Assembly: GCA_905221615.1 (NCBI GenBank)
Contig: CAJNDT010003301.1
Coordinates: forward strand, 683,255 to 747,254
DNA: 64,000 bases
Reading direction: 5' to 3'
DNA from: Symbiodinium sp. CCMP2592
Taxonomy: Eukaryota > Sar > Dinophyceae > Suessiales > Symbiodiniaceae
Of this stretch, positions 39,004 through 60,363 are shown in pieces. The translations under genes were made by a program, and so were the position numbers. Under the pieces are notes generated by a model that saw only the letters and a list, made by a program, of their open reading frames with translations, was not told the origin of the DNA and did not search any database. Position 1 is the stretch's first letter; each line of letters begins with the position of its first letter.

Positions 39004-39102
<99 letters not shown>

Positions 39103-39103
39103 A
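38899..39103. repeat. TATATG hexanucleotide and TA microsatellite abutting the 5' LTR
   Basis: About 14 uninterrupted ATGTAT units at 39,006-39,085 followed by TA repeats. The microsatellite stops exactly where the LTR begins (TGCGAACGG at 39,104), marking the left boundary of the retroelement. Confidence 0.92.
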
Positions 39104-39536
39104 TGCGAACGGACTGCGATGCCTTGTCAAGTTCTAAGGTGTCACTATAAGAGCTGTGAGCAAGACCGTGTAAAGTGCAAGAGAAGGGGGCACGCTACGC
39201 GTCTCTCGACTCTAAGGGGGCATGCTACGCATCCCTCATCTTTACCTCTCTATGTGACCGCCAACGCAACGTTTGGCTCAAGTCAATGCCCATAGCTAAG
39301 TGCTATATGTGTCTTCTATCCTGAGCAATCAGAGCTATCCCGTTGCACAGACGAACCGCCGCCGGCAGTGAGTGCAAAAGGAACGGCCGCCGGTTCTGCC
39401 TGCATAGGATTGCACGTGTGGAAGTAAGAGGGAGAGACAGGGTCCAGTCTGTGGAGAGTGCAAGCCAGCCACACCTACATTCATTACAGCTCTGGTGGGG
39501 AGAGCAGCAACCAAGTCGAGATCAATCCCCCACGCA
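39104..39536 (+). repeat. 5' LTR (433 bp)
   Basis: It starts TGCGAACGGACTGCG and ends CCCCCACGCA. It is about 98-99% identical to 58,067-58,487, apart from a 12-base insertion (cccgttgcacag) near 39,334. It contains a local tandem pair, GGGGGCACGCTACGCGTC and GGGGGCATGCTACGCATC. Confidence 0.95.
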
Positions 39537-39560
39537 GGTTATCAGCCGTACGCGGCTCTG
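39537..39560 (+). other. Possible primer binding site
   Basis: Immediately after the LTR the sequence is GGTTATCAGCCG. This resembles the common initiator-Met-tRNA primer site TGGTATCAGAGC with a one-base insertion. The match is imperfect and the assignment tentative. Confidence 0.4.
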
Positions 39561-39600
39561 CCTTTCTACAGCAACGACTACTTGATCTACTACGACCACA

Positions 39601-42600: not shown

Positions 42601-45573
42601 CAAATTGGCTTGCGCCAGATGCTTGAGGGCAAGGATTTGCTTGCTGCACCGGCCAAGGTACCCGAGAAACCAACGCCTAACGCAGCTCCATCCGCAAAGG
42701 TCAAGGCTTCGCCGACCAAGCCGGATAAAGCAACACCTGTACTACCTCAAAGCAAAGCGAAGAGTCATGCGAAGACCAAGCCAAAGCCCAAGAAGAAGAC
42801 GAGGAGTGAGTCAGCGGACAACAGAGGTGACAAAAGCAAGAAGCAAATCCGCTGCAAGTTCCATTTCACAGATGCAGGGTGTCGAAATGGTGATAAGTGT
42901 CCATTCAGTCACTCGAAGAAGACTCCAGAGCGACCCTTCACGCCGAGGACGAGAACTCCAAGTCCATCTGGAGGAGGAGGAAACAGGATATGCTACTCGT
43001 TCAAGAACACAGGCTCGTGCTCAAGAGAGAATTGTCCTTTCAAGCATGAGGCAGCAGCTACCCCAGCTCCGGAACCAAAGGCAAAAGCTAAAGCTAAATC
43101 CGAAGCGAAGGCAGCTCCAGCGAAGCCGAATGCCAAGGCCAAGGCACTCCCTGCGGCACCCGCCATCAGATTGTGTCGAAGGTGGAATCCATCAGCTCCG
43201 GCTATATGGAAGCGATCTTCAAGACAAGATGAGGAGGAGTCAGATTGTCCATCCGTTGACAGCGACGCTGATTCGGATTGTTCAACAGATGACGAATCCT
43301 CGGGAACGACTACGTCGACCCGAAAAGAGATAAAGCGTAATGTGACGTTCGCCGATGACGTGAAGTTCATTTCTTCGTGTCCTAGAAGATCGAAGAAAGA
43401 CAAAGAGCGGAAGGTGAAGTACGTCGACATGGAAGCGTTTATCAATGATGAGGACCGCGCCGTGAGCTTGGAATTCGCCAAGCACAAAGCGAGATTGAGG
43501 GCACAGATCATGAGAGACATGGTTGACGACGATGATGATCAATGCGGAGATCGAGTTTCATTCGTACGAATCCCAGGAACGCCTCGAGTGGAAGAAGTTT
43601 CTTTCTACGACGGTGAGGATTCCATCGTTGAGCGCGAACTCGATGCTGCACACAGCAAACGGATCATCAATCAAGGCGTATTCAAATGCATGGTTCAACC
43701 AGTCATCCTCAAGAAGAAGATCAAGTTTCTCATGGACACTGGGTGTGGTCACGACCTCATATCTCAGAAGAAGATCGAGAAGCACAGTCTCGAAACACTC
43801 GTGACTCCAGAGCCCATATCATTTCAGACAGCCAATGGAATCACCGATACCGATCTCGTGTCGAATTTCCAGACTGAGTCGTTCGAGGAACCAATCAACG
43901 CTTATGTGTTGGATGACACACCGTCGGTGCTTTCCATAGGCAAGAGATGTATGAACTTCAACTACGGGTTTGTGTGGCCACCCGGAAGGGAACCATTCAT
44001 GATCAACCCGCAGGGCAAGAGAATATCTCTGTTCGTGAACGGTGACATCCCGTACGTTCGTGCCGGGAGTTCTAAGTCATTGGTTCATGATGATCCGGAG
44101 GCCAAAGCGATCACCGAAATCTTCAAGGGTGCGCTAACAGCGGGCAATGTTGACGTCAGCGTCGCAGCTGCCGCTGAAGCTGCACCGAGCGAGATTGAAG
44201 CAGAAGAAGAAGGTGACGATCATGAACGACCTCCTGATCCTGAACCCCAAGAACCTCCTATAGAAGAAGTACCAGAGTCCGAGGCCGGACGACCTCCGGA
44301 CGACGACGAAGGAAAAGGAGTGGGTGAAATTCCATTGGATGGTGATGATGAGGTGATCATTGATGTGGAAGGCGACGGTGCGCCGAGCCGCAAGGCCAGG
44401 GTCGGAACACTGAAAGCCGAAGCCAAGACGTTGGCACATCTGTGTACCCACCGTTACCGCAATCCATATTGCGAATCGTGCATACGCGCGAAGATGAAGC
44501 ACTTGCGAACACAACGAGGTGCGTTTCAACGTGTGATCAAACACTGGGGAGATCTTGTGACGTTCGACTTCCTTGACATGCGCAAGGCCGCCGAAGCAGG
44601 CATCGGACTCGATGACGGAGCACGTGAAGTTCTAGTCATCAGAGATATCGCCACCAAAATGATCGCAGCGATTCCCACGGCTTCAAGGAGTACTGACGAG
44701 GTCGTCATGGCCATCAGACGTCTAATGGGAAGACGCAAGATTCATATGGCGTACAGTGATGAAGCACCAGAGTTCGATTCAGCTATGGCGCAGTTGAAGA
44801 TCGTGATAGATCATTCCCTTCCAGGGAAACCCAGTAACAATTCACTCGCTGAACGATCAAATCAAGAAGTGATCAACACAGTCGCAGCATCCATGCTACA
44901 CGCCGGATTGCCCGCTCAATACTGGTCCTTTGCGCTTAATTGCGTGATGCAGAACCTCAACGTTGAAGACGTGGAGGGCGATGGTGATTCAGCATGGAAG
45001 CGAATGACTGGAAAGGACTTCGAGGGAAAAGCCATACCCTTTGGGGCCAAAGTCTTCTTCAAGCCGACGGACACAAGGCCGAAGACATATGGCAACAAAT
45101 TCGATCCAAAGGGGATTCCAGGCATTTTTGCCGGATACATCATCACTGCTGGTCAAGGATGGTCCAAGAAGTATCGCGTTTGGGATATGAAGGAATTTGC
45201 CAACGCGAACTTGTCGATGGACGCATCTGTTCCCAGGAAGTTGATGAGACCGTACGAGACAGAAGTTATCTACTTCCCAGAGGAGATAACGTTTCCCCTG
45301 AAAGCCGAGTACGAAAGGATGAATTCAACCATTGAGGGACTAAGGGACAACGTTGACCTCGCTGGCAAGGAGATAAAAGACGTCGATGACGGTGATGACG
45401 GTCCGCCCGGAGGAAATGGTGGCGACGGGGATGATGATGATCAAAATGGACTTCTTCCTCCACCGGATCCCGGAGAAGATCCTGACTTACAGGACATAGA
45501 TCCATCTGACATAGAGACGGAGCCGCCGGCGAAGTCTTCAAGTCAGCAGAACATGAAGCTATTGATGCCATAG
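39601..45573 (+). CDS. Gag-protease-integrase polyprotein of the giant element
   Basis: 1,990 aa. Residues about 1-180 are basic and Ser-rich; about 185-470 form a long coiled coil rich in Glu/Gln; about 690-770 are acidic. About 780-1,000 look like a copia Gag capsid region. Two CCCH zinc fingers follow, C1085-x8-C-x5-C-x3-H1104 and C1131-x8-C-x4-C-x3-H1149, in the position where copia elements usually carry a CCHC knuckle. The protease site is FLMDTGCG (D1379). Integrase has HLCTH...CESC (1613-1627) and a candidate catalytic triad D1656, D1720 (YSDEAPE), E1751 (LAERSNQE). The D-to-E spacing of 31 is a little short for the family. The frame ends in TAG at 45,571, while the next ORF is open in the -1 frame from 45,510. 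Acts in virus-like particle assembly and integration. Confidence 0.9.
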   Translation: MNSGSSQDTTMTFGADVAAPAVGESTADDTVVQSVDSSTEDDKGQSSALAIAKAVPKGKAKSLPRASTPSRPTSTGSRTGKASERRAEASGFQAPRTTSRAKDKGVKTLEKKSRPSSSRSSSARSRTSATRGRDKSMTWNRMVTNQPRDADDLDMTLDTIPARGDASSVTTPAIADGPNAYQELTISQQLEASNLAQQMYYRSQMQEYEGVVQTLMDKIKEMQQEDEGSGIRIEELERQRDHACLAMRHINNVNQEMKRDYETALFRMDEQNSAQQRQAHAVAEELAQQLHVFRTEAATNFVQLEARAQGDGELMAREYERLTHELHEHARENLVLRSNTASSEQALQAMQERFHLVKNQELRAVNEIQGLAGNSAAIDQERFRLRERLGEEEEYRKMAVKRMQEAEDRLHQNEDHARRSLPTLHDELSELRKTLKAQEDLQARTRSELEAARNSNYGGATRPSSMPMSSRTTESGWEHIGKEVVPAFSVGGEVRSPEIRSPSQVSPVAKEKFAFSESDKDKNLVMDGIPFTGGNFFTGRSSMPIVADAMPEHYVPGISSPALARSTPSAATLFGIPSGFHGKSDAAAVRDRQLRELLEDRGMLGSKSTASASSSRPVGVDGITASTKGNDLIGPPIAYDDSIHEARRRQIEKEVAERYEEKIADLRSEVLKAQKAEQRLRADRDEWKLFAETIQEDNGDDDGDEAGDENEDGEHDEGTGTGYDPPDPPDDDDDKKKSGGGKPESDPGSHARDPDGDADPEVTEVRISRREADKVTVPPWPTLTHLNNWRSVCTANVLGASADPHHEDWMLWLAPAFNPFPDVEALNDSGHKKFKSIDVKLGIAMVAMLRAGGDKSADLYLEVNRKANDYISRPDGKIIKGRQIIAMMYESFRTHDRLDMIITLEYLVKLQYQGDNKLHTFKQTWLEVLGRMRPEDIPSKTALRDCLYSKIKDSPAMKMELGMHYEHLPYNHEDRSYDNLMKIIDRTIMRRREQSNLTQTQIGLRQMLEGKDLLAAPAKVPEKPTPNAAPSAKVKASPTKPDKATPVLPQSKAKSHAKTKPKPKKKTRSESADNRGDKSKKQIRCKFHFTDAGCRNGDKCPFSHSKKTPERPFTPRTRTPSPSGGGGNRICYSFKNTGSCSRENCPFKHEAAATPAPEPKAKAKAKSEAKAAPAKPNAKAKALPAAPAIRLCRRWNPSAPAIWKRSSRQDEEESDCPSVDSDADSDCSTDDESSGTTTSTRKEIKRNVTFADDVKFISSCPRRSKKDKERKVKYVDMEAFINDEDRAVSLEFAKHKARLRAQIMRDMVDDDDDQCGDRVSFVRIPGTPRVEEVSFYDGEDSIVERELDAAHSKRIINQGVFKCMVQPVILKKKIKFLMDTGCGHDLISQKKIEKHSLETLVTPEPISFQTANGITDTDLVSNFQTESFEEPINAYVLDDTPSVLSIGKRCMNFNYGFVWPPGREPFMINPQGKRISLFVNGDIPYVRAGSSKSLVHDDPEAKAITEIFKGALTAGNVDVSVAAAAEAAPSEIEAEEEGDDHERPPDPEPQEPPIEEVPESEAGRPPDDDEGKGVGEIPLDGDDEVIIDVEGDGAPSRKARVGTLKAEAKTLAHLCTHRYRNPYCESCIRAKMKHLRTQRGAFQRVIKHWGDLVTFDFLDMRKAAEAGIGLDDGAREVLVIRDIATKMIAAIPTASRSTDEVVMAIRRLMGRRKIHMAYSDEAPEFDSAMAQLKIVIDHSLPGKPSNNSLAERSNQEVINTVAASMLHAGLPAQYWSFALNCVMQNLNVEDVEGDGDSAWKRMTGKDFEGKAIPFGAKVFFKPTDTRPKTYGNKFDPKGIPGIFAGYIITAGQGWSKKYRVWDMKEFANANLSMDASVPRKLMRPYETEVIYFPEEITFPLKAEYERMNSTIEGLRDNVDLAGKEIKDVDDGDDGPPGGNGGDGDDDDQNGLLPPPDPGEDPDLQDIDPSDIETEPPAKSSSQQNMKLLMP

Positions 45574-48500
45574 GAGACAAAAGACTCGAAGAACTAGACG
45601 AAGAGCTGGGTCTACGTGCAGCACCGCCTCCTTCTGAACCAAAGGTCACTGGGAAAGATCGACGATCGCCCCGCGAAGTCGGTCCAACCGGTAGACTCAT
45701 CCCCGAAGGAGACATCGAAGAACCTGGAGAGATTATCAAGATCTTGAAAGAAAAGAAGTTGGCTCCCGAGGAGATTGAACATTGGAGTACGGGGAAGAAA
45801 GGGGACGGCATTGTATATCTCACCGATGACGGTGAAGCCTGCAAGATCGACAAAAGGGGAGTTCCGTATAAGATCCGAAGTGACGGTCGACGAACTCTTC
45901 CTACACGGCGACCTATCCATTCTTATTCTCCGGAAGCATGGAAGAAGATGAGCGAAACGGAGAAGAAGGCAGCATACAAGAAAGAAAAGCGAGACAAAGC
46001 TCGAGTTGCCAAGAAAGACCGGAAGAAGGCTGTGATAGGAAAGAAGATAGTTACCAAGATTTTGGACAACATGATCTTTCCCAAGATTGTCCCATGTGAA
46101 GAAATTGATCTGCAACTCAACGTGTCCATTGATGACGACGATGGTTGGTCATGGGCACAGTCCTATGTGGATCAATACACACAAGAACAATTCTTGGCAG
46201 ACGTCGTGCCGGCCGTTCCGGCGCACATGGTCATGGATGACAACTGGATTCCTTCTATGCCGTGTACGACTTCTCACAGAAACGTACATCGGGAAAAGAA
46301 TCATGCAGGAGGATCGTGCTTCAATGCCATGGTCACTCGACCCGTCACACGCAAGGAGATGATCAACAATCCCAAGGCCATGGAAGCTTTCATGAAAGAA
46401 TGGAAGGGATTGTGGGACCAAGAGGTGTTTGACTTCTCAACTACGCGTGAATATGACGACGTCGTCGCTGAGGCAAAGAAGAAAGGTGAGAAAGTACACA
46501 TGGCGCGAGTACATGGACTGATATACGAGAAGAACTATCAGCTCAAAGAGGACGATCCTGCCAGGAAGTTCAAAGGGCGAGGTGTACTACTCGGTGATCA
46601 GGTCAAAGACCAGAACATGGAAGCCGCATTGTTTCAGGATTTGGGGAATTCCCCGGCTACGTTTGACGCCTCACGGTGGGCAGATTATTACGGATGCCTT
46701 CCTGGCAACGATGTCCAGATGGCGGATGCTATCCAAGCATACATTCAGGCAAGACTGTCGGGTACTCCATGTTGGGTTGAACTGCCTGATGAAGCCTGGC
46801 ATCCATCTGCGAAACGGCATAAATTCCGTAGGCCTGTATGTCGCCTGATCAAAGCTCTATATGGACATCCTGACGCAGGAACCATGTGGGAACAACATTG
46901 CCATACCGCGGTACAGAAAGTAGGATTCAAGCCACTTGGCGATGAATGGCCATCATTGTATTTCCACCCGCAAATGAAGCTCTTGCTTGTCATCTACGTG
47001 GATGATCTCAAGATGGCAGGACCCAAAGAGAATCTACCCAAGGGCTGGGACATGCTGCGCCAAGAACTTCGATTGGAAGAAGAAACGCCACTGGGCTTGT
47101 ATCTGGGTTGTCGCATCTCCAAGGGCGAGGCAACGTTGCATGACAAAACGAAGGTGCAGACCGTTACCTACGACATGGAGACGTACCTGGACATGACAGT
47201 CAAGAAGTACTGCGACGTGACTGGGTTCGATCCGACAAAATTCAAGACGGTACCATCGCCGAGTCCGGCTGAGGAGACTAAGAATCACCCAGCTCGCGCT
47301 CCGGCACAGTCAGGTAAAAGCCATCGATGCACGTGGTGTGGACACACCATGCCTGTTGATAAGGATGGTCGGCTCGTTCCGCCTCCACCTATTCCCAAGG
47401 CGCCCGAGGAAGAGGAAATCAACGAGGCTAATCGCGGTGCACTTGCTCCGCAGGCAGCCAGCATTCTCATGAAATTGCTTTATGCCGCGCGCATTTGCCG
47501 CTTTGATCTTCTGCGCAGTATCAACAATCTCGCACGCAAGATCACGAAATGGACCAAGAAGGAGGATGCTCTTCTTCATCATCTCATGGCCTATGTGCAC
47601 CAGTCCAAACATCACATGATGATTGGATGGGTCGGGAACTCCTTGGAGGACTCGTCCATCGGGCTGTTTGCAGATGCGGACTATGCAGGTTGTGGAGAAA
47701 GTTTGAAATCTACCTCCGGTGCTCACTTGCACATTCAAGGTTCTCATACACGATTTCCCTTGGCGGGACTTAGCAAAAGGCAGGGATGCTTGAGTCATTC
47801 CACACCTGAGGCCGAGATTGTCGCGGCCGACTTTGCCATGTCACGTCTTGGATTGCCTGCTATCACGTTGTGGCAGCAGCTTGGGGGGCAAGACCCCAAC
47901 TTCGTCTTCTACGACGACAACCAGACCATGATCGGGGTGATTCGCACGGGCAAGAATCCGACTATGCGTCACTTGGAGCGTACCCACGGTATCTGCATTG
48001 GATGGATGCATTCTATCTTTCAGGAAGGTTACGTTTCTCTTGCCTATGAGGTCACTGCCAAGATGTCAGCGGACATACACACCAAGTCGTTCAAGGATTC
48101 CGTGTCCTGGACACATGCGTGTCAGCTCATCAACATCTTTCCGCCGGATCTCATCGGCTCCCAAGAGATTATGGATCTGATGCGCCCTACTCATACCCAA
48201 AGCACAGATGAGAAGGGTCAGCAGCACTACTCGTTCAAGAGCGAGGTGCCTTGTTTTCCTTACACGCAGACGCCGATCCTCCCTCAGGTGTTGTATCGCG
48301 CTGGATTGTCGAGTAAGGAAGGCTTGCAAGAACATGACAGTGTGGACCCCATCCTGGTTGTCAAGTTCCCGCGCATGTTGCGGGGGCCGCCTTCCGCGTT
48401 GCCGCCTGGTCGTTACCTTCGGTCGACTTGGATTCTTCGTGAAGGGCAGTGGCACCAGCTGGAGGACCGTGCTGCTATCCTTGACACACCGGGCAAGTTC

Positions 48501-50498
48501 GACCGCTATGTGGAGCGTGCTGTGTTTCAGTACCATCCGGTACGGGGGCATTTGCGCCCCGCCGCCATTGCGGACGTCCTTGCGCCGCCGTTTTTGCCTC
48601 CTCCTGAACCGCCTCTAGGCCAGTCTTATGTGCGCGCCCTGCCCGCCAAATGGCGAGCGGTGGTTGTCACACTGGCGCGTGCCATCCATGGGGGGTACCA
48701 GGGCTTTACATTGCACCAGGGCTTTTGTTTCAACGGCCAGTCCAAAAGTCAAGCCTCTCAATTTGGTTATGACCAATGGTCGTCGGTGTACGAGGATGTA
48801 TGGCATGATGCGGCGGAACAGAAAAGGGAATATCAAGGATATGATGGAGCAATTGTGCCTCACGTGGTCAATTTCGCCGAAAACAAACCCAAGGAGGGCC
48901 TGGTGATCCAATTCCTCGACCACGATGGAAGGTTGGTCCATACTTACAAGAATCCTTACAGCCGGTGGAAGTACCGTATCACTATCAAAGATGCTCCAAA
49001 GGCAGTGACGGTGTGGACATTGATAGGAGTCGATGAGGAGAACTGGTGGAATGAGTATGCTCCAGGCAAGGATTGCATCGCCCAGCATGCTCCCGATTCT
49101 CACTACGACCCTGGGCTGCAAGTAAATGTTCTGAGTATGGGGCGAGAAGTTGACGACGCCATGTGCGCCTACCTCTTTGATGTGGTGGAAGCAAGGAAAG
49201 ACAACCCTAACTCCGTGATCTTCATTGGTGCAGGGGTGTTGGGCAAGAATTCGTGGCTGAGTCGGAAAATCGCTGACAACCCTGAAAGGGCCAAATTGCG
49301 GACAGACTACCCATGGGGGGAGGTCGTCCAAAGAATTGCGCGCAGAGCGGCATCATGGGGGTTCCAAATCATCATCGAAGTACCTCCTCGAGTACCAGTC
49401 CAGGAAACCAAGCAGTACAAGGGACTTCAGGAAGATGCCATGTGGAAGAGCATCAAGATCCAAGGATGCACTCACGGGCAACGTTATACCTTTCGGGATC
49501 CTGTATCTCCCGGAACCGCCGTTGAGCTCGGCTACTGCAAGGATGAATGGGAGTACATTGCCGCAAACGTCGCGTTGCATCCTAAGTCGTCTGATGTGTG
49601 CTCGTCCAAACATTTGCACATGACTGATTCGGACGCTAAGGATCGATCTGATAAATGCGAGTTGACTAGCCAAATATCCAGGAGATTGCTTAAAGCCTTG
49701 AAATTTCAGGCAACGGGCGATGGGAGATTGGTAGCCATGCCGTCGAAGGCTGGTGGACGAAAGCCAGACCGCATGATTGTTGACCTCTGTGGCTTGGGTA
49801 ATGGCTACGCCGTGCCTAAGTCCACTAAGGGTTGCTCTCGCATAACTTGCAAGGAGCTGATCGGCTCCAAAGCCGATGAGGACAACCTTATCGGTACGAT
49901 GAAGGATGCGTGCCGGAACGACCTGCGCACACCTGTGCTATTCGTGGCATCGCTTTTGCGATCAGGTGCTGGTCCTGGAAGTAGTGAAGGGGCTTGCGTG
50001 GGGGGTGAGAAACGTTCCGGTGGGAAGTACAAGGTTTTCAGAAGTGTCTTGAAATCTCTCAAACGCCTGCTGAAGAAGTGTGCGGAATTTTCCGACGTCT
50101 ATTTTTCGCTTGACATGCCTTCTTCATGTTCATGTTGGTCTTGGCCAGAGTTGCATGCTCTTGTTTCAAGTGGCAAGGTGACGAAGGTTAAGGTTGATGA
50201 TCATGTTGGTGCTGGTGGCGATGGTGGTGGACGCAGGATCATGTTCTCTAACATGCCTGAAGCGGATCGTTTGATGGTGAGACCGGATGATTGCTTGGAC
50301 CATGATTCGAAGAGCAGTTTGTCGCAGCGCATTGATGTCTCATGGCGGTCAATTGCGAGGAATGTTCGCAGCCTTGTTCGAGCTCATGTCAGTGTCAGTC
50401 ATGTTGCACATGAATCTGAGGACATTGCATGGCAGCAACATCAGTGTGTAGACGCTGATGAAGGGGCTATTAGACAGCCCCAACTAAGGAACAACTAA
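45510..50498 (+). CDS. Reverse transcriptase-RNase H ORF with a ~750-residue extension
   Basis: The first ATG is at 45,744 (1,584 aa from there), but the frame is coherent upstream to 45,510 and overlaps the preceding ORF by about 60 bases in the -1 frame, suggesting fusion by frameshift. Numbering from 45,744: a copia RT with RLIKALYGHPDAGTMW (canonical SLYGLKQAPR.W region) and catalytic YVDD at 418-421, then RNase H with D644 (ADADYAG), E689/E691 (STPEAEIVAAD) and D724 (YDDNQ). RNase H ends near residue 830. The remaining ~750 residues are not standard for copia and include segments such as VVVTLARAIHGG, FAENKPKEGLVIQF and IDLCGLGNGYAV-like text. I do not recognise this extension. A TAA-terminated end is followed by a 112-base gap. 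Confidence 0.88.
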   Translation, partial: HRDGAAGEVFKSAEHEAIDAIGDKRLEELDEELGLRAAPPPSEPKVTGKDRRSPREVGPTGRLIPEGDIEEPGEIIKILKEKKLAPEEIEHWSTGKKGDGIVYLTDDGEACKIDKRGVPYKIRSDGRRTLPTRRPIHSYSPEAWKKMSETEKKAAYKKEKRDKARVAKKDRKKAVIGKKIVTKILDNMIFPKIVPCEEIDLQLNVSIDDDDGWSWAQSYVDQYTQEQFLADVVPAVPAHMVMDDNWIPSMPCTTSHRNVHREKNHAGGSCFNAMVTRPVTRKEMINNPKAMEAFMKEWKGLWDQEVFDFSTTREYDDVVAEAKKKGEKVHMARVHGLIYEKNYQLKEDDPARKFKGRGVLLGDQVKDQNMEAALFQDLGNSPATFDASRWADYYGCLPGNDVQMADAIQAYIQARLSGTPCWVELPDEAWHPSAKRHKFRRPVCRLIKALYGHPDAGTMWEQHCHTAVQKVGFKPLGDEWPSLYFHPQMKLLLVIYVDDLKMAGPKENLPKGWDMLRQELRLEEETPLGLYLGCRISKGEATLHDKTKVQTVTYDMETYLDMTVKKYCDVTGFDPTKFKTVPSPSPAEETKNHPARAPAQSGKSHRCTWCGHTMPVDKDGRLVPPPPIPKAPEEEEINEANRGALAPQAASILMKLLYAARICRFDLLRSINNLARKITKWTKKEDALLHHLMAYVHQSKHHMMIGWVGNSLEDSSIGLFADADYAGCGESLKSTSGAHLHIQGSHTRFPLAGLSKRQGCLSHSTPEAEIVAADFAMSRLGLPAITLWQQLGGQDPNFVFYDDNQTMIGVIRTGKNPTMRHLERTHGICIGWMHSIFQEGYVSLAYEVTAKMSADIHTKSFKDSVSWTHACQLINIFPPDLIGSQEIMDLMRPTHTQSTDEKGQQHYSFKSEVPCFPYTQTPILPQVLYRAGLSSKEGLQEHDSVDPILVVKFPRMLRGPPSALPPGRYLRSTWILREGQWHQLEDRAAILDTPGKFDRYVERAVFQYHPVRGHLRPAAIADVLAPPFLPPPEPPLGQSYVRALPAKWRAVVVTLARAIHGGYQGFTLHQGFCFNGQSKSQASQFGYDQWSSVYEDVWHDAAEQKREYQGYDGAIVPHVVNFAENKPKEGLVIQFLDHDGRLVHTYKNPYSRWKYRITIKDAPKAVTVWTLIGVDEENWWNEYAPGKDCIAQHAPDSHYDPGLQVNVLSMGREVDDAMCAYLFDVVEARKDNPNSVIFIGAGVLGKNSWLSRKIADNPERAKLRTDYPWGEVVQRIARRAASWGFQIIIEVPPRVPVQETKQYKGLQEDAMWKSIKIQGCTHGQRYTFRDPVSPGTAVELGYCKDEWEYIAANVALHPKSSDVCSSKHLHMTDSDAKDRSDKCELTSQISRRLLKALKFQATGDGRLVAMPSKAGGRKPDRMIVDLCGLGNGYAVPKSTKGCSRITCKELIGSKADEDNLIGTMKDACRNDLRTPVLFVASLLRSGAGPGSSEGACVGGEKRSGGKYKVFRSVLKSLKRLLKKCAEFSDVYFSLDMPSSCSCWSWPELHALVSSGKVTKVKVDDHVGAGGDGGGRRIMFSNMPEADRLMVRPDDCLDHDSKSSLSQRIDVSWRSIARNVRSLVRAHVSVSHVAHESEDIAWQQHQCVDADEGAIRQPQLRNN

Positions 50499-50610
50499 GG
50501 TCTGACCAGACGGATCGGGGAAGGGTGCCTCTTACGGAGAACCCGGAACCGTGAAGTCGAGTAGGGTGTAGGGACTTCCCTCCTACGGAGGAAGGACCGA
50601 AACCCGAGCC

Positions 50611-53190
50611 ATGGCTGAAAGCTACAATGCCTACGAGCTGGCCTTCGAAGGAGTGGACCACGAAGAAGTTTTCCCGTCTGGTGGGATGATGCGAACGTTT
50701 CTGAAGTTCCACAAGTTCCTGGAGATGTATTCTGGGGATTCGTCGCAGAGCGTTTCGCTCCCGCCGAAGATTACGAAAGACAAAGTGGTCGACAATGATC
50801 TCATTCGCACATGGGCAGCGTTCAAAGCACCTCCGTTGGTCTTGCTGTTCACGTGTGCAAATCTGTCGCCAGGAGGGGATCTTTCCATTCGAGTCCGAGA
50901 AATCCTCAAAGCTTGCTTATTTGCTGCCCCTGAGGAGTACATGGACAAACCCTATGGGGAGATACTCGCCATGGTCATCAAGTTTGGTGGAGGTCTCAAA
51001 CACATTGTTGCTGACTACGAGGGGAAGTTCAATGCCATCACCAGGTTTATGGTGGATGAGGAAGTGATCCGCGATGATGCAAAATTGGCTGTAGTTGAAC
51101 TGGAACAAGAACGAAAACAAGTTCGGTTCGACTTGAACACTGCAACAAGGAACATCGTCAGTGCGGACGTGTACTACAACCTCGCCGTTCTCATCAACTC
51201 CGTGGAGACGCCCTACCAGGCCGTGACAGACACGAGAATTCAACAATGGTATACGGTGAATCAGGACTACTACCACAAGTTGCCTATGTCAGGTAGAGCA
51301 CCTGACCAATCAGACCTGTTGGCAGAGCCTACGTTATGTAGGGTGTGCAAGCTGATGTACATGTTCGCAAAACACACTGGGTATGGACTACGGACCTACA
51401 ACCAGGAATGTGCAGCGAGCAACGATGGCGCTACGCCACTCAACGTTCACCAGCTGGCTTTGATGATGCGCACAATGCCTCAAGGCATGGGACATCCGCT
51501 CGCCTTTGCGATGAACTCGCTCCAGGCGTTCAGTGTCTGTCTCCACGTGCTTCATTCCTACGTATCATGGGTTGATCCAGAAACTGGACACCCGCATTAC
51601 AGATGGTCCAACGATGTGCTCCCTGATTCCGACTACACCACGTATTCTTTCCTCAAGCACCATGTGGATGCTGTATGTGCAGATCAGGACAGGAACGGCT
51701 TCCAATTGCCGGATGCGTTCCGTGGCTACACCTGGAATCAGTGCGGAGTTGAATCTGGGTACGTGGTCGACTGCTCTACCAAACGCGCCACGTTGGGCAT
51801 ATGGGAAGCAGAATTCCAACAGATGGGGGCACCAAGTCCGCTTATGCAAGATGATGGCCTATTTCCGCCCAATCTTCAACGGCATCCTAGCTGGGTATAC
51901 TCAACGGGGAGAGTTGCGATGCCTACGGCAAGCAACCTCGAACCGGAAGGAATCGTGCAACCTGAGCATGGAAGAACGCCGGGACAATCGCAAGGATCCG
52001 CTGCCGAACCTCGAGCCACCCCTAGCCACGGACCAAAGAGGGCAAGGACGGACGAGGCAACGGCATCGGCGTCGTCATCTTCTGCGGCACCTCCTCCACA
52101 ACCATCGTCTTCGCAACCGGAAGAGGAACCATCGCAACCGACATGGGAGGAAGCTCCAATCCCCGCTGGCGCTCAGGAAAGTTGGTACCATTATGTCAAC
52201 ATCGATGAAAAGGGCTGTCGCTCGAGCTTGCTGGCGACGACCCGTGATCAAGACGAGTACCCACCTACCATTGATGAGACGCCAAAGTTTGTGGCCAACC
52301 ACGACGTGGGGACCACACCGATTCAGCATTACGTCAGAAGACTGGTGACCTATTTGGCAAGGATCCGTTCCGTCTCTCAAAGTGATGACAAGGGTCTCAA
52401 CCTGAAGGTCTACGTGAAGCTGAGTACGAAGGTGTGGTTACGGATGTATTCACGGCTGTACCATGCATTGGCATTGGTGTCATGCGTGCATCTTCCTTCT
52501 CCTCCAATGCTTACCTCGGCAGTGATGATCGAGGCAGACAACGATCTTGTCGACAACGATGAAATTCCGGCAGAAGCAAGGATCAACACCATGAACACGC
52601 TGAACGGATTTCGCAATAGTTTGGGTATGGGTGGCAAGCCTGATGCCGCGACTATGCGCTCTCAATGCACAATCCTCGTCCAAGACTTTGACATGGTCGC
52701 AAGGACCAGGGGATCAACGCATACAGTGAGAGAGAACCTCGGCATGCATGGATGGAGTGAGATCTACATTGTGAGCCCGTCGATCACCACAGGTGCCAAC
52801 TACAACTTCCAAGTCACAAAAGGATCGTTGGAATCTGTGAATGCGACATTGGATGGCTTGACTGAAGAGCAGCTTGCAACCGTCACATTGCATTACCATC
52901 TGTCTCTCCAGGCGATCCTCATCGAGAACATATCATTTCCGATGAGTGAGGTCGGAGACGGAGCAGCAATTCGTTCTGACTTGCAGCGACAGCTCAAGGT
53001 CACGTACGTTGACCCTATCATTGCGGCAGGGAAGCGTACCACGCGCCCTCCAATTGTCAACATCAATCACGACTTACGGTTCGTAGGGCAGCCAGCAATT
53101 ACCTTCGACAGAAAGCTTCTCTGTTCAACGGCTTCCACGCGCTGGGAATGTATATTGAACTGGAGTTGCGAGCCCGAGCATGCGTGGTGA
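50611..53190 (+). CDS. Accessory ORF A of the giant element (859 aa), unknown function
   Basis: It starts at an ATG 112 bases after the RT ORF. The N-terminal half (residues 1-440) is folded-looking with Cys and Trp. Residues about 455-525 are Pro/Ser/Gln-rich and disordered (polyproline and AASASSSS runs). The C-terminal part (about 540-859) is again folded. I find no recognised motif. In the -1 frame, coherent coding begins before this ORF stops (near 53,100), so it may be continued by the next ORF through a frameshift. It lies entirely between RNase H and the 3' LTR and so is carried by the retroelement. Confidence 0.75.
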   Translation: MAESYNAYELAFEGVDHEEVFPSGGMMRTFLKFHKFLEMYSGDSSQSVSLPPKITKDKVVDNDLIRTWAAFKAPPLVLLFTCANLSPGGDLSIRVREILKACLFAAPEEYMDKPYGEILAMVIKFGGGLKHIVADYEGKFNAITRFMVDEEVIRDDAKLAVVELEQERKQVRFDLNTATRNIVSADVYYNLAVLINSVETPYQAVTDTRIQQWYTVNQDYYHKLPMSGRAPDQSDLLAEPTLCRVCKLMYMFAKHTGYGLRTYNQECAASNDGATPLNVHQLALMMRTMPQGMGHPLAFAMNSLQAFSVCLHVLHSYVSWVDPETGHPHYRWSNDVLPDSDYTTYSFLKHHVDAVCADQDRNGFQLPDAFRGYTWNQCGVESGYVVDCSTKRATLGIWEAEFQQMGAPSPLMQDDGLFPPNLQRHPSWVYSTGRVAMPTASNLEPEGIVQPEHGRTPGQSQGSAAEPRATPSHGPKRARTDEATASASSSSAAPPPQPSSSQPEEEPSQPTWEEAPIPAGAQESWYHYVNIDEKGCRSSLLATTRDQDEYPPTIDETPKFVANHDVGTTPIQHYVRRLVTYLARIRSVSQSDDKGLNLKVYVKLSTKVWLRMYSRLYHALALVSCVHLPSPPMLTSAVMIEADNDLVDNDEIPAEARINTMNTLNGFRNSLGMGGKPDAATMRSQCTILVQDFDMVARTRGSTHTVRENLGMHGWSEIYIVSPSITTGANYNFQVTKGSLESVNATLDGLTEEQLATVTLHYHLSLQAILIENISFPMSEVGDGAAIRSDLQRQLKVTYVDPIIAAGKRTTRPPIVNINHDLRFVGQPAITFDRKLLCSTASTRWECILNWSCEPEHAW

Positions 53191-54626
53191 TTCATGGATC
53201 TTCGTTTTGGTCAAGAATGTACAGCCAGACGAAACATGCGTCATCAGGCGTGCATACACTGTCAGCCGAAAAGGTGCCAGCACCGGACAATCGGGTCAGG
53301 TTCAAATTGGGCTTCGCTATCTACGAGAAGCAGCTGTTCTGCGAGAAGATGGTATCCACGTGCTTTGTTGAGGCATCGAAAGTTCGCTCATGGGACGAAA
53401 CTGTCCGAACCGACTCAGTCGCTCACCCGTCGCTTGTCGAGATTTGGGAGGACAAGAGTGAAGTCAAGACGTCCACCAAGATTTCGCAGACATGGTTTAC
53501 GGGGGAACAGCAGCAACAGATCAGGTCGGGTGCCCAGGGTGACACGGTCGCTGAATCGTCCACAGTCACCTGGCAGGATTTTGACATCGCCATGACCGTT
53601 CCCGAAGCCTACTACGACAACAGGCACTACTGGTTCAGGATCGACACCTATGCGACCCTGAACACTGGTTATGTCAAAGGGAGAACGTTCTATTGCCCTG
53701 GATGTGAAGCAATGAAGTTGGCTGAGTGCTACGCACAAGCCTTCTTCAAGCCGACCGGAAACGGGTATCCTGGACACTGCATTGGGTGCGCGCATACTTC
53801 AGCCTTGAAGATGCAGCATCAAATCGGCTCCTTCAATGACTTGATCACGTCCCAGAAGTACACCTTGGCTTGCGCAAAGCACCTTTATGACCTGAGGCTT
53901 CAATTCGTGGATCCTCGCGTGGACATCAAGGAGTTCCTCAAAGTTTGTGCAGAGATGGTCTATGAAGACATCGGCAAGACGCTTTCTCACTACGGTGGTC
54001 TCCGAATCACAGCCAGTCAGGCCATCGAGTACGCGGCATGGGGAAAGGCCAAACAGTTGGCATGGGACAGAGGGTACGACTCCGAAGGCAAGACATGCTA
54101 CATCTGCTACTACGATGCCGGGAACTGCGCTTATGCTGGTTTCATGAGGATGCTTTTGACTCCGGAAGAGCGCCAAGAATGCTACAGAGGGTCAGTCTTG
54201 CCCAAGGAAGAGCGCCTGGGTGACACAGTGGAGCTGGCGCTCGGGCTTCTTACAATTGCAATGAGACACCCAAGTCATTTTCCGAATTGGGGTGGCCTTG
54301 AGGGAGCAAATGCGTGCGCGAGGGGAATCGAAAGATCATTCTTCCGCTACGCGTCGGCCGAAGCTGTGAAGGATTTGTCGCGCAGCTTCAGGACTATGTG
54401 GGCGTACTCGCTCAGGGCGAAATGTCAGTCGGAAGCGACCGCATCACGTTCTGTGTCGCTTGTGGCAGTGATCTACACACTCTGTCCAATTGCACAGAAA
54501 ATGCTGCGACTCGGGATCTGGTACTTCGAGGCGTCCAGATTATCAAGGAAAGCCTTCTTCGATATCCACGTCGAGTACCTCCACAAGAGGCTGAGCCAAT
54601 GGACGTTGACACCACAGACCATGTGA
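53148..54626 (+). CDS. Accessory ORF B of the giant element, zinc-ribbon-like, unknown function
   Basis: It is 492 aa from ATG 53,148, but the frame is open and coherent a little upstream (RQKASLFNGFHALG). A probable zinc ribbon is formed by CPGC (near 53,695) and CIGC (near 53,785), with another Cys pair, CYIC (near 54,097). Past about 54,420 the reading becomes unconvincing, while the -1 frame (ORF C) becomes convincing. The true product therefore probably switches frame there, by programmed frameshift or by a mutation. Confidence 0.7.
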   Translation: MYIELELRARACVVIHGSSFWSRMYSQTKHASSGVHTLSAEKVPAPDNRVRFKLGFAIYEKQLFCEKMVSTCFVEASKVRSWDETVRTDSVAHPSLVEIWEDKSEVKTSTKISQTWFTGEQQQQIRSGAQGDTVAESSTVTWQDFDIAMTVPEAYYDNRHYWFRIDTYATLNTGYVKGRTFYCPGCEAMKLAECYAQAFFKPTGNGYPGHCIGCAHTSALKMQHQIGSFNDLITSQKYTLACAKHLYDLRLQFVDPRVDIKEFLKVCAEMVYEDIGKTLSHYGGLRITASQAIEYAAWGKAKQLAWDRGYDSEGKTCYICYYDAGNCAYAGFMRMLLTPEERQECYRGSVLPKEERLGDTVELALGLLTIAMRHPSHFPNWGGLEGANACARGIERSFFRYASAEAVKDLSRSFRTMWAYSLRAKCQSEATASRSVSLVAVIYTLCPIAQKMLRLGIWYFEASRLSRKAFFDIHVEYLHKRLSQWTLTPQTM

Positions 54627-57600
54627 GTGTTGCATCCTCGGACCGACGAACCAAGGCCAAAGCCCGACCGCGACGCGGAGGCGAAGCCGTACGGGGTGAT
54701 GTGGTCTTGATCCGTTATGAGAACAAACACAATCTCTGCACGGATGTGGAGAACCGTCGGGGGCTACATGATGCTTGTGGCGTACCACTGCAGGAATCGG
54801 GACCAGAGAATAGCCAGCGAGTGGTGGACCTTATTGAGCAGCTTTCGGACCATCGCGACCGACGCCTACCTCAACGAGGAGACCGTCCTAGCTTTGCTTA
54901 CGATGACAACACTCATAGCTACACCAATGCAGGCTATGAATCCATCGGCGGCGGAAGGCCAATCCGGTGCGGGATTCTCGACCTGATCCCAACCAAGGGT
55001 GCAAGCTTCATCAACAATCGATGGGACCTCGTGAACGAAGTTGTCGTTCGCAACATCACCCGTCAGCGCAGACTGAACGCGGATTGGGCGCTATCGTGCA
55101 TCCAATCTGACCTACGCCACAGAATCGCCAGGCGCCCAGGCTCGGAATGGCTTGACAACAGGTGCCAGGTGGCATTCAACAGTGTCATCAAATGTGATGA
55201 AGGAGGGTGGGTGATGATCGAAGACTTGGTGAGGCATGAGCCACTATGGACCCATGAAAGCAGACGCATCACCGAAGCGGTCTCAAGGACCGATGAGCAA
55301 CAGAAGAAGAGAGTGTACAATGAAAGACTTCAGCTATTGTTCCAAGGGAACATGATTGCAGCCACGAAACGCAACAAGGCCAAGATTCGGTTGCAGTTCC
55401 TGGGTGTGAGAGTGAAGGACCCCGGCACGGAAGTTCTTGGATCAGCAGGTTCGAACAGGTTGGTATCGGTTCAGGACCAGATCACGGAGATCCAGAACAA
55501 CGATCATTGCCGGCATGGCCAGAGGTACCTGAACATATGCAACGGCTGGGTGAAGCCATGGGCAGTTAGGGCTACGAGTGGTCACTCTGCGCACTCAGAT
55601 CCCCAGAACAACTTGCTTCAGTTGGACAAGAACAGGTTCGCAATATCTCCATCTATGACCCTCTTGCAACGTCTTGGAGGTGCGTTCCACGCTACGGCAT
55701 GCCGCAACTTGGATTCCATTGTCACGCAAGGCATCATGCCTGGTTCGGAGGACCCCGACGGGGACTTCGACCATAGGAGCCAATTCCGAGGCAACCAAGG
55801 TGGCAGACTCCACAGCTATTGGGGGGTGTTTGCGCCGTTCGATCACCGGAACGCAACGACCAAGATGCGAGTACATGGACGAGACGCCAAACACATGCCA
55901 TTGGCGGTCCTTCATGTCCCATCGCAAGATCTTGCACGAGAAGATGGACGTATCACAGACAGCGGCATCATGATCGTTGGTCGAACGATACCTTTCCATT
56001 GCGTCAAGGAGGTATGGTTTTGCGTCCCTGATCCTCGAGATACACACTCTTTCGCTCTGGTGGAAAAGATCTACGATGAAAGGTTGGAGAAAGAGCTGGT
56101 GTGGGACTACAATGCATCACCGTTGCTTCCCGAGTTCGAGAGATACCGAACGCCAAGCAAGATCATGGAATTGCTTTGCGAGATGCCTCCTGGACCCCAC
56201 GACACAAGCAAGGAGCAGATCATCCGAGACCTCACGACTGTCCTGGAGTCCCACAGGGAGAACACGGTTCGGCATCACTACATGGACAAAGGAATCAAGT
56301 TTGTCATCAAGAATTGGCGACCCGAAGACCTACGCAGAGACGAGGATGGAAGGAGAATGAGGGTATGCCCGGCATGCTACAACATTGTTCAAGCATGTTT
56401 CTCCCGATGCACGTCTTGCTGGTCACAGTTCATTTCAAGCGGATATTATCAAGGTTCTCCACAACGGGATACTCCTACGGAGATCCCCAGTGACTTCATT
56501 GCTCAGACAATGGAAGCCGCAGCAGCCGCAGTGCCTGAGGCGCCCGAAGAGGAGCAGGAAGCCATGGAGGGAGAGACCGTTGCGGAACCTGAGGAAATCC
56601 CAGAACCATCTGTCATCGCGGAGGACGATCCAGAACAGGAACCTGATGAAGAAATGGACATAGAGCCAGGAGAGGACTTTGATGACGCAGTTCCAGAAGC
56701 AATCGCACAGGAACGTCGTCCCGTCTTCGTTACCGGCCAATCTTTGAACATCGATCCTGAGCTACAACTTGCACGTACCGCCATGCAGCCATCCTACTAT
56801 TCTGGAAAGCGAAATGCCCATTGCATTGACGCGAACATGACCGCTCTTTCGTACATGGCATACGTGGTATGCAGATCCATCTACAAGGCCTGGTCAGGAT
56901 TCGCAAAGTGGGCGACTATGCCGTTGTTCCAGATGAGGGAAAGTTTCGCACTTGGACAACGCTATGATGTGCTCGGAAAGTGGGGATCTTTGGCGGCAGT
57001 GGATAGGGAAACGGGTGTGAGCAAGGATGTGACTGATGAGGAGATCATTCGCTTTGCCAAGGAGCCTGAGAATCTCAAGCAGTATGATCCCAACGGGACT
57101 TACACCTTAAAGCGCTTCCGGACGAACCAGATGCTTTCTTTACTTACACGGGGAGCCAACATGATGGGAATTGGCAGGGACAACTTCAACCCTACTACTT
57201 ACTTGAAGAGCGAACGGGATGAAGATGTGAAGGCTATGCACTTTTGTTGCCTGAACGTCCTGTGCGAGGTGATTCCAATGGTGACGGGACACCAACAATT
57301 CTCAGTGCTACGACCAACGCCAACTGGACCGGTGGATTTCTTGTACATCGACCCCGTCGGTATCTTGCTGACTCATTCTGATCAGTCAGTCCAGACCATC
57401 GGCTTGCTGGTGGACCATAGTGTGCAAATGCCTGCGCATTTCATGGACAGATTGAATCGATCCAAGGCTGAGAGACAGCAAAACCCGACGACCAAGCGTA
57501 CTGAAGCTCTACACCACATTTCGGCCGCTGACTATCTCCCTCCAGGTGGTACGTCCATCCTGGACACGCCTGTCACTACGGAGGAACGTGAAAGCGCTTC

Positions 57601-57802
57601 TTCGTCCAAGGGACCTTCAAAAGGGCGTGGGAGAACCGGAGGTGAGCAACTTGGAGGCTGGAACTCCAACTCCTACTACGACTACACCGCCGGCAAAGGC
57701 CGAAACAAAGGTAAGGACAAGGGAAAGCATCGGGAACAGTATCCAGAGGAAAACCTCCGGCCCTGGGACCGCGATCCTGCGACCACGCGAAGATGGAGGT
57801 GA
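54314..57802 (+). CDS. Accessory ORF C: Tpt1/KptA-like RNA 2'-phosphotransferase domain
   Basis: 1,162 aa. Residues about 255-570 follow the order of Tpt1/KptA enzymes. R268-H269 lie in DLRHRI, followed by DEGGWVMIEDLVRHE (the winged-helix lobe, normally GWV.V..LL). R419 lies in AVRATSGHS (normally IRA.QGHS). HAT459-461 begins HATACRNLDSIVTQGI (normally HGT....I...GL). R498 and H500 lie in GGRLHSYWGVFAP (normally R.H.H), and SGIMIVGRTIP fits the (S)NGV.LT...IP end. Family Tpt1 enzymes transfer an internal 2'-phosphate from spliced RNA to NAD+, using an Arg-His-Arg-Arg set; all four seem present. After it come a CPAC...C..C zinc ribbon (about 680-700), an acidic linker, a second unknown domain and an RG/KG-rich tail. 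The first ~40 codons overlap ORF B and may not be used. Domain call by motif order only. Confidence 0.65.
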   Translation: MREGNRKIILPLRVGRSCEGFVAQLQDYVGVLAQGEMSVGSDRITFCVACGSDLHTLSNCTENAATRDLVLRGVQIIKESLLRYPRRVPPQEAEPMDVDTTDHVSVASSDRRTKAKARPRRGGEAVRGDVVLIRYENKHNLCTDVENRRGLHDACGVPLQESGPENSQRVVDLIEQLSDHRDRRLPQRGDRPSFAYDDNTHSYTNAGYESIGGGRPIRCGILDLIPTKGASFINNRWDLVNEVVVRNITRQRRLNADWALSCIQSDLRHRIARRPGSEWLDNRCQVAFNSVIKCDEGGWVMIEDLVRHEPLWTHESRRITEAVSRTDEQQKKRVYNERLQLLFQGNMIAATKRNKAKIRLQFLGVRVKDPGTEVLGSAGSNRLVSVQDQITEIQNNDHCRHGQRYLNICNGWVKPWAVRATSGHSAHSDPQNNLLQLDKNRFAISPSMTLLQRLGGAFHATACRNLDSIVTQGIMPGSEDPDGDFDHRSQFRGNQGGRLHSYWGVFAPFDHRNATTKMRVHGRDAKHMPLAVLHVPSQDLAREDGRITDSGIMIVGRTIPFHCVKEVWFCVPDPRDTHSFALVEKIYDERLEKELVWDYNASPLLPEFERYRTPSKIMELLCEMPPGPHDTSKEQIIRDLTTVLESHRENTVRHHYMDKGIKFVIKNWRPEDLRRDEDGRRMRVCPACYNIVQACFSRCTSCWSQFISSGYYQGSPQRDTPTEIPSDFIAQTMEAAAAAVPEAPEEEQEAMEGETVAEPEEIPEPSVIAEDDPEQEPDEEMDIEPGEDFDDAVPEAIAQERRPVFVTGQSLNIDPELQLARTAMQPSYYSGKRNAHCIDANMTALSYMAYVVCRSIYKAWSGFAKWATMPLFQMRESFALGQRYDVLGKWGSLAAVDRETGVSKDVTDEEIIRFAKEPENLKQYDPNGTYTLKRFRTNQMLSLLTRGANMMGIGRDNFNPTTYLKSERDEDVKAMHFCCLNVLCEVIPMVTGHQQFSVLRPTPTGPVDFLYIDPVGILLTHSDQSVQTIGLLVDHSVQMPAHFMDRLNRSKAERQQNPTTKRTEALHHISAADYLPPGGTSILDTPVTTEERESASSSKGPSKGRGRTGGEQLGGWNSNSYYDYTAGKGRNKGKDKGKHREQYPEENLRPWDRDPATTRRWR

Positions 57803-58066
57803 ATCAACGCTTGGTCTTCCTCGCCTATCAGTTCGTGACCTCTGAGCTTCGCCCATGGAATGCCATCGCGAATGCTTCTTTCTTCGGTGACGCCTGATTA
57901 GTTTGTCATTTCAGGGGATCGTTACTGACGTAGATGAGTGTCACAACGTTTCTAATTGGGATGCAAAGCTCTGATTTTCAATGTCAACGTTGCGGCGGAA
58001 CATTTTCTGCTGTCCTATCGTGCCATCTTCCGGGTGAGCAGCGTCGGAGACGCAACTCATGGGGGG
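57803..58066 (+). promoter_or_regulatory. 3' untranslated spacer with polypurine tract
   Basis: About 264 non-coding bases between the last ORF and the 3' LTR, ending ACTCATGGGGGG directly before TGCGAACGG. The G6 run with preceding purines fits a polypurine tract priming plus-strand DNA synthesis. Confidence 0.65.
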
Positions 58067-58487
58067 TGCGAACGGACTGCGATGCCTTGTCAAGTTCTAA
58101 GAGGTCACTATAAGAGCTGTGAGCAAGACCGTGTAAAGTGCAAGAGAAGGGGGCACGCTACGCGTCCCTCGACTCTAAGGGGGCATGCTACGCATCCCTC
58201 ATCTTTACCTTTCTATGTGACCGCCAACGCAACGTTTGGCTCAAGTCAATGCCCATAGCTAAGTGCTATATGTGTCTTCTATCCTGAGCAATCAGAGCTA
58301 TACGAACCGCCGCCGGCAGTGAGTGCAAAAGGAACGGCCGCCGGTTCTGCCTGCATAGGATTGCACGTGTGGAAGTAAGAGGGAGAGACAGGGTCCAGTC
58401 TGTGGAGAGTGCTAGCCAGCCACACCTACATTCATTACAGCTCTGGTGGGGAGAGCAGCAACCAAGTCGAGATCAATCCCCCACGCA
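58067..58487 (+). repeat. 3' LTR (421 bp)
   Basis: It starts TGCGAACGG and ends CCCCCACGCA. It lacks the 12-base insertion of the 5' LTR. Immediately downstream, the sequence reads straight into a copia integrase (THLPYRDWCPHCVKAKG). Confidence 0.95.
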
Positions 58488-60127: not shown

Positions 60128-60314
60128 GACGAATCTCACCGAAGGTGATATAGTTTTATTTTCCTGATTCCGAATTTTGAAAGTTTGACTTTCAAGAGCC
60201 CGAAGTTTTCCCTTAATCGTTTTCCAGTCTTTGGAACGATGTGGAATCTTCCTTTGCCCGTGCAACATTACGGCTCCAGGGAGGGAGGTGGGAAACCCCG
60301 TAGCTGGGCAATCG
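60128..60314. repeat. Structured repeat family, copy 2
   Basis: This matches 9,756-9,945. Hairpins are TCACC-gaa-GGTGA at 60,136-60,148; TTGAAAG-tttga-CTTTCAA at 60,177-60,195; and ATCGTT..CCA-gtctt-TGG-AACGAT at 60,216-60,240. The conserved block GGGAGGTGGGAAACCC lies near 60,281-60,297. It sits exactly where the copia RT breaks off and 50 bases before the Gag-like ORF of the next element, so it may be that element's 5' non-coding region. Confidence 0.7.
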
Positions 60315-60363
60315 AATTGGCACCGCTGAGAGGACCACTCGGATACTCCAGCAGAAGGCCAAA

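What the first reader, a model, noticed from the sequence alone, without database searches (positions are those of the whole stretch)
54314..57802. A Tpt1/KptA-like RNA 2'-phosphotransferase inside a giant copia retrotransposon
Seen: residues in the order R268-H269 (DLRHRI), DEGGWVMIEDLV, R419 (AVRATSGHS), HAT459-461 with NLDSIVTQGI, R498-x-H500 (GGRLHSYW), and SGIMIVGRTIP, between the RT ORF and the 3' LTR. Known: Tpt1 enzymes use an Arg-His-Arg-Arg set to move a 2'-phosphate from RNA to NAD+, finishing tRNA splicing. Inference: the element carries its own RNA end- or junction-processing enzyme. It might act on its tRNA primer, on spliced element RNA, or as an ADP-ribosyltransferase against the host. 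I know of no described LTR element with this cargo, but I could not search the literature.
Basis: partly seen in the sequence, partly recalled or inferred. Interest (0 to 1): 0.92.

Follow-up and report, generated by a model that had tools for sequence, protein, structure and literature searches.

The report
RNA-repair enzyme inside giant jumping gene
A very large copy-and-paste DNA element of an alga related to coral symbionts (Symbiodinium) carries, in many nearly identical copies, a conserved version of the RNA-repair enzyme Tpt1, and other kinds of jumping genes in the same genome carry Tpt1 too, which suggests that such elements have repeatedly recruited RNA repair.

Summary
ORF 54302-57802 lies inside a 19.4-kb Ty1/copia-type LTR element (LTRs 39104-39536 and 58067-58487). 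It contains a divergent Tpt1/KptA domain: Pfam PTS_2-RNA 27.2 bits (cut-off 26); the 15 best structural matches of an AF2 model (pLDDT 66) are all Tpt1/KptA; a profile comparison puts the Arg-His-Arg-Arg tetrad in register. The own genome (1.1 Gb, Symbiodinium-like) has at least 109 copies at 98-100% protein identity, none with a stop in the domain. In 37 of 109 the domain lies in an uninterrupted frame of 2509 or 2513 residues; the window copy has this polyprotein broken into three frames. Eleven copies show 38 synonymous and 13 nonsynonymous variants (pN/pS about 0.10), so the domain is selected. Canonical Tpt1 domains also occur in three LINE-type architectures of the same genome; for one of these, 101 of 150 listed hits show its typical open frame. 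Tpt1 is therefore recurrent retroelement cargo here. Seven literature searches listed no report of this. Best mechanism: NAD+-dependent removal of 2'-phosphates from element RNA or its primer. That step is inferred; no activity, substrate or expression was tested.

The parts
39104..39536 (+). 5' LTR (433 bp, TG...CA)
   Evidence: matches 58067-58487 with 5 mismatches and one 12-base indel
39537..39562 (+). putative primer-binding site GGTTATCAGCCGTACGCGGCTCTGCC; its complement ends ...GG-CTGATAA-CC, like a tRNA anticodon arm (half-tRNA type priming)
   Evidence: identical in 3 of 3 further copies in which the 5' LTR end was found, of 5 tried; tRNA not identified
39586..45573 (+). ORF1: gag-like, CCCH zinc finger, aspartic protease, integrase region
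   Evidence: zf-CCCH 26 bits (over cut-off), gag-asp_proteas 22.1 and SH3_retrovirus 17 (both below cut-off); integrase core read by eye
45510..50498 (+). ORF2: copia reverse transcriptase, RNase H and C-terminal extension
   Evidence: RVT_2 E 6.2e-8, 33 bits, cut-off 31.6; RNase H by motif (recalled)
50572..53190 (+). third polyprotein, part 1 (no known domain; first 416 residues predicted all-helical at very low confidence)
   Evidence: (P0041 73% identical)
53013..54626 (+). third polyprotein, part 2 (frame break in this copy)
54302..57802 (+). third polyprotein, part 3, holding the Tpt1/KptA domain and a weak zinc-ribbon match
55067..56077 (+). Tpt1/KptA-like domain (ORF residues 256-592; two lobes)
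55115..55120 (+). codons of R272-H273 (tetrad positions 1 and 2, LRH)
55568..55570 (+). codon of R423 (tetrad position 3, AVRATSGHS)
55688..55696 (+). codons of H463-A-T465 (H-x-T motif)
55805..55807 (+). codon of R502 (tetrad position 4, GGRLHSYW)
58061..58066 (+). purine tract GGGGGG before the 3' LTR (putative PPT)
   Evidence: identical in 5 of 5 further copies
58067..58487 (+). 3' LTR (421 bp)

Best explanation
The domain is a real but strongly diverged Tpt1/KptA domain (N-terminal RNA lobe plus C-terminal NAD+ lobe), built into the third polyprotein of a high-copy, recently active giant Ty1/copia-type retrotransposon and kept by selection. Most likely it is an NAD+-dependent RNA 2'-phosphotransferase working for the element: it removes 2'-phosphates left on the element's genomic RNA or on its tRNA-derived primer after cleavage by metal-independent nucleases and re-ligation, so that the RNA stays usable as template, message or primer. 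Shown here: domain identity, tetrad conservation, position inside the element in the copies examined, purifying selection, and separate Tpt1 cargo in LINE-type elements of the same genome. Inferred: catalytic activity, the substrate, expression, and benefit to the element. I put the identity at about 0.93 and the 2'-phosphate mechanism at about 0.45; the figure below is for the whole statement.
Against: No activity, expression or substrate data. The domain is far from canonical Tpt1: NCBIfam gives no match for the window protein; of nine database relatives that I ran through Pfam (of 13 then known), 5 match PTS_2-RNA below the cut-off (13.9-21.2 bits) and 4 not at all at E 1 or less; P0001 has a precomputed PF01885. 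It is about 337 residues where the solved Tpt1 chains in the 15 top rows have 177-206, and the position that I equate with Cth Lys66 is Ala (that lysine is not essential, PMC6333775). H504 next to the fourth Arg is not kept in 3 of 10 rows, and one relative lacks the fourth Arg. AF2 mean pLDDT is only 66, pTM 0.51. Whether the host makes RNA 2'-phosphates (ligase type) was not tested, because the genome search stayed unavailable.
Confidence: 0.5

Rival explanations
1. The domain keeps the Tpt1 scaffold but has been retooled as an ADP-ribosyltransferase that modifies a host target (protein, DNA or RNA ends) to help the element, instead of finishing 2'-phosphate removal.
Against: The tetrad residues that read the RNA 3'-phosphate and 2'-phosphate are kept in nearly every covering row; the N-terminal RNA lobe is kept; the LINE elements carry near-canonical Tpt1.
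Confidence: 0.3
2. The enzyme acts specifically on the tRNA primer. The PBS looks complementary to a tRNA anticodon arm, so the primer may be a half-tRNA cut in or near the anticodon loop, and Tpt1 would clean its end or the re-sealed tRNA. This is a special case of the best explanation.
For: The PBS complement reads GG-CTGATAA-CC, an anticodon-loop-like string, identical after 3 of 3 further 5' LTRs found. Half-tRNA priming in Drosophila copia is recalled, not looked up.
Against: No tRNA gene matching the PBS was found: 0 tRNAs in the window and in 13 fetched loci, and the genome-wide pattern search did not complete. LINEs need no tRNA primer (recalled) yet also carry Tpt1, so a tRNA-only role does not explain all families.
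Confidence: 0.15
3. The domain is catalytically dead and kept as an RNA-binding or structural module, or is a decaying relic.
For: The window copy of the polyprotein has broken frames; one relative, P0005, lacks the fourth Arg.
Against: Tetrad kept in nearly all covering relatives; pN/pS about 0.10; 0 of 109 scored copies with a stop in the domain.
Confidence: 0.06
4. The domain is a host gene captured by chance in this one locus and not part of the element.
For: The window copy lacks a target-site duplication.
Against: Same distance from the 5' LTR in 6 of 7 copies picked, at least 109 copies of the domain, and a Symbiodinium sp. KB8 gene model (P0040) that joins the RNase H region of ORF2 to the same polyprotein.
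Confidence: 0.01

Closest known systems
Tpt1/KptA RNA 2'-phosphotransferases (PF01885; CthTpt1, RslTpt1, human TRPT1)
   Same: Two-lobe fold, Arg-His-Arg-Arg tetrad and H-x-T motif in the same order
   Different: About 337 aa with inserts, Lys66 position Ala by alignment, fused into a retrotransposon polyprotein, activity unknown
DNMT-bearing retrotransposons of Symbiodinium (SymbioLINE-Dnmt, SymbioDIRS-Dnmt3; PMC5890265, passages read)
   Same: Same host genus; high-copy retroelements that captured a host-type enzyme; its LINE type has TSDs and no poly-A tail, as LINE-B here
   Different: The cargo is a DNA methyltransferase in LINE and DIRS; that paper says LTR Copia lacks DNMT; its main text contains none of the terms phosphotransferase, Tpt1, ubiquitin, PF00443 or PF01885
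KptA domains in polyproteins of positive-strand RNA viruses (Beihai picorna-like virus, Botrylloides leachii nidovirus; PMC9503650, passages read)
   Same: KptA embedded in the polyprotein of an element that copies itself from RNA
   Different: Viruses, described there as rare; the words transposon, retroelement and retrotransposon do not occur in the main text of that paper
Ty1/copia LTR retrotransposons
   Same: RVT_2, protease and integrase region upstream of RT, TG...CA LTRs, 5-bp TSDs in 2 copies, PBS and PPT
   Different: 19.4 kb with an extra polyprotein of about 2500 aa after RNase H

Membership tests
Tpt1/KptA (PF01885) | Significant match to the family profile | tested here: met
   27.2 bits, cut-off 26, E 4.6e-6; but 9 of 9 relatives run are below the cut-off or unmatched, and NCBIfam has no match for the window protein
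Tpt1/KptA (PF01885) | Arg-His-Arg-Arg tetrad in order and in register | tested here: met
   tetrad as defined in PMC6333775 (passages)
Tpt1/KptA (PF01885) | N-terminal RNA lobe plus C-terminal NAD+ lobe | tested here: met
   AF2 model (pLDDT 66) aligns over model residues 17-353 with Tpt1, top row 7yw2; 15 top entries all Tpt1/KptA
Tpt1/KptA (PF01885) | Tetrad residues close in space | not testable with these tools
Tpt1/KptA (PF01885) | NAD+-dependent removal of RNA 2'-phosphate | not testable with these tools
   needs biochemistry
Tpt1/KptA (PF01885) | Conserved lysine two residues before the third tetrad residue (Cth Lys66; not essential, so not a defining feature) | tested here: not met
   Ala421 in 13 of 13 covering rows; the equation with Lys66 is by alignment only; non-essential in RslTpt1 (PMC6333775)
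Ty1/copia LTR retrotransposon | RVT_2-type RT with protease and integrase upstream | tested here: met
   protease and SH3 matches are below cut-off and the integrase core was read by eye
Ty1/copia LTR retrotransposon | Paired TG...CA LTRs, PBS and PPT | tested here: met
   PBS by position and shape only, no tRNA found
Ty1/copia LTR retrotransposon | 5-bp target-site duplication | tested here: inconclusive
   present in 2 of 2 other copies where both flanks were found, of 5 tried, one of them in a GTA repeat; absent in the window copy
Retrotransposon cargo (accessory enzyme kept by selection) | Same place in many copies, open frame, purifying selection | tested here: met

The most novel reading that the evidence does not exclude
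Unrelated retroelement classes of Symbiodinium (giant copia, and LINE-type elements of three architectures) have recruited Tpt1/KptA because the host damages or marks retroelement RNA in a way that leaves 2'-phosphates. The element-borne enzyme reverses it, so this would be an RNA-level restriction and repair arms race that works through NAD+.
Probability: 0.3. Interest if true: 0.95.

Novelty: new variant of a known kind. Interest (0 to 1): 0.85.

Why it matters
Tpt1 is a tRNA-splicing and RNA-repair enzyme, and why it is so widespread is an open question. Finding it as selected cargo of a high-copy LTR element, and again in LINE-type elements of the same genome, says that RNA 2'-phosphates (or another Tpt1 substrate) matter for retroelement success in dinoflagellates, and gives material to test this directly. 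It also warns that some 'TRPT1' or 'kptA' genes annotated in Symbiodinium may be retroelement ORFs.

Tried and rejected
Chance motif or not part of the element: rejected by copy number, LTR distance and selection. Relic: unlikely. Single-sequence search of solved structures with the window ORF gave only two weak matches of the acidic stretch; the alignment profile gave Pyrococcus Tpt1 at E 0.023, not significant alone. Structure of the N-terminal part of the third polyprotein: pLDDT 45.7, all-helical, uninformative, not searched. tRNA primer: no tRNA in the window or in 13 fetched loci; Rfam none in the window. Domain scans of P0040, P0041 and P0043 found nothing over cut-off. Host RNA-ligase type (PF09511, PF01139) could not be tested. 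A regex count of the tetrad on the 26 LINE-B-like database proteins is strict: 12 of 26 match all three patterns, 4 of 26 lack the LRH part; only the 8000 candidates sharing most words were scored in that search. Of the 30 LINE/host loci, L013 has Lys in place of the third tetrad Arg and L030 has a stop; both were left out of the profile, which used 9 representatives. The six between-type dN/dS comparisons were saturated (4 of 6) or 0.26 and 0.43. The end of the 5' LTR was not found in 2 of 5 further copies in the stretch fetched, and the exact LTR start not in 3 of 5.

Literature: seven searches listed no paper on Tpt1 or KptA in a retrotransposon; only open-licence PMC papers are held, and I saw listings of at most 20 papers each. 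Papers read only as passages: PMC9503650, PMC6333775, PMC5890265, PMC6456296, PMC10625715, PMC11453091, PMC7245778; of PMC6338049 the first quarter.

Full report
What is there. The window is a 64-kb end piece of a contig of a 1.098-Gb genome. Its nearest named relative is Symbiodinium microadriaticum (P0001, 96% identical over 66% of the query). A 19,384-base LTR element runs from 39104 to 58487. The LTRs begin TG and end CA, and differ by 5 mismatches and one 12-base indel. A purine tract precedes the 3' LTR, and a PBS-like sequence follows the 5' LTR. ORF1 has a CCCH zinc finger and weak protease and SH3 matches; ORF2 has a copia RT (RVT_2). Three more ORFs follow, and the last (54302-57802) carries the Tpt1 match.

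Is it part of the element, and is it selected? The own genome has 109 scored copies, the window's included (1194 first-look candidates; counts are lower bounds), all 98-100% identical over the 376 residues, with no stops in the domain. The open frame around the domain is 2509 or 2513 aa in 37 of 109 (count). The window copy has this frame broken; relative P0041 (2490 aa) covers the three window ORFs in order at 73-78% identity. P0040, a gene model of Symbiodinium sp. KB8, joins the RNase H part of ORF2 to the same polyprotein. The 5' LTR lies 16212-16226 bases before the domain in 6 of 7 copies that I picked from the listings; the seventh (15,927) is like the window (15,915). The LTR search gave 40 scored of 1361 candidates. 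In three copies whose LTRs could be compared, of five tried, 0, 1 and 4 mismatches were found in 375-379 bases (5' LTRs partly fetched), so insertions are recent. TSDs of 5 bp were seen in 2 copies, one in a GTA repeat. Among 11 copies of the domain, 38 synonymous and 13 nonsynonymous variants give pN/pS about 0.10.

Tpt1 in other retroelements. The PF01885 search of the genome gave 152 matches from 150 scored of 1550 candidates; the window's own domain is not among the rows listed. Three LINE-type architectures were read. Type B: one ORF with endonuclease (weak), RVT_1 (E 2.7e-22) and a UCH deubiquitinase match (E 2.7e-8), a 304-aa ORF, and a 667-aa ORF with a PARP-like stretch (below cut-off) and Tpt1 (E 6.7e-41). 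Three copies share a unit of about 10.0 kb and show target-site duplications at both ends, read by eye. Of the 150 rows listed, 101 show the open frame of 663-671 aa typical of type B; only three of these were read in context. Type C: Tpt1 in a long 5' ORF with an endonuclease-like part, then RT and UCH. Type D: Tpt1 ORF followed by endonuclease and RT, read in one locus; a second hit (L018) has the identical domain. RTs of B and C are 28% identical over 806 residues. Tpt1 dN/dS is 0.11-0.17 in the six within-type comparisons (types B and C, L001 counted with C); the six between-type ones are saturated or 0.26 and 0.43. Some B-like proteins of Symbiodinium carry database names such as TRPT1, kptA and tRNA 2'-phosphotransferase 1. 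The giant element is copia, B to D are LINE-like, so at least two captures are needed; whether B, C and D share one capture was not tested by a tree.

How it may work. Tpt1 transfers an RNA 2'-phosphate to NAD+ (PMC6333775). In yeast, an RNA junction that keeps its 2'-phosphate is cut again and stops Xrn1 (PMC6456296). In a few RNA viruses KptA sits in polyproteins and the authors raise processing of viral RNA (PMC9503650). By analogy the retroelement domain would clear 2'-phosphates from element RNA or primer. That LINEs, which need no tRNA primer (recalled), carry it too argues for a substrate on element RNA or in the host response, more than for the primer alone. All of this is inference; no expression, activity or host ligase data were obtained.

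Novelty. Enzyme capture by Symbiodinium retroelements is known for DNA methyltransferases (PMC5890265, passages). Seven searches of the open-licence library listed no paper on Tpt1 in retroelements. I rate it a new variant of a known kind.

Noticed in passing
L031-L034, L040-L041 (G000): LINE-type element of about 10 kb with RVT_1, a UCH deubiquitinase domain, a PARP-like stretch and a canonical Tpt1; target-site duplications seen in 3 copies.
   Followed up: partly
L035-L038 and L039 (G000): Two more LINE-type architectures with Tpt1 in the 5' ORF; one also has UCH.
   Followed up: partly
P0025, P0026, P0027, P0032, P0036: Database proteins of Symbiodinium named tRNA 2'-phosphotransferase, TRPT1, kptA or TPT1 resemble the LINE-B ORF and may be retroelement proteins rather than host genes.
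   Followed up: no
window 39537-39562: PBS complement looks like a tRNA anticodon arm (loop CTGATAA), suggesting half-tRNA priming; also a 5-bp inverted repeat AGCCG/CGGCT.
   Followed up: partly
window 39044-39103; 3' flanks in L045, L049: Several copies lie in simple repeats (TA, ACT and GTA repeats), perhaps a target preference.
   Followed up: no
window 39103 / 58488: The window copy lacks a target-site duplication: the 5' flank is a TA microsatellite, the 3' flank is the coding part of what looks like another copia-like element (ORF 58379-59653, by eye; no Pfam match).
   Followed up: no
window about 48400-50498 (ORF2 C-terminus): Long unexplained extension after RNase H without a Pfam match.
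   Followed up: no
window 50572-54626: Conserved part of the third polyprotein with no known domain; its first 416 residues are predicted all-helical at low confidence.
   Followed up: partly
window 60304-61206: Another ORF that ends in a cysteine- and histidine-rich, gag-like stretch (by eye).
   Followed up: no
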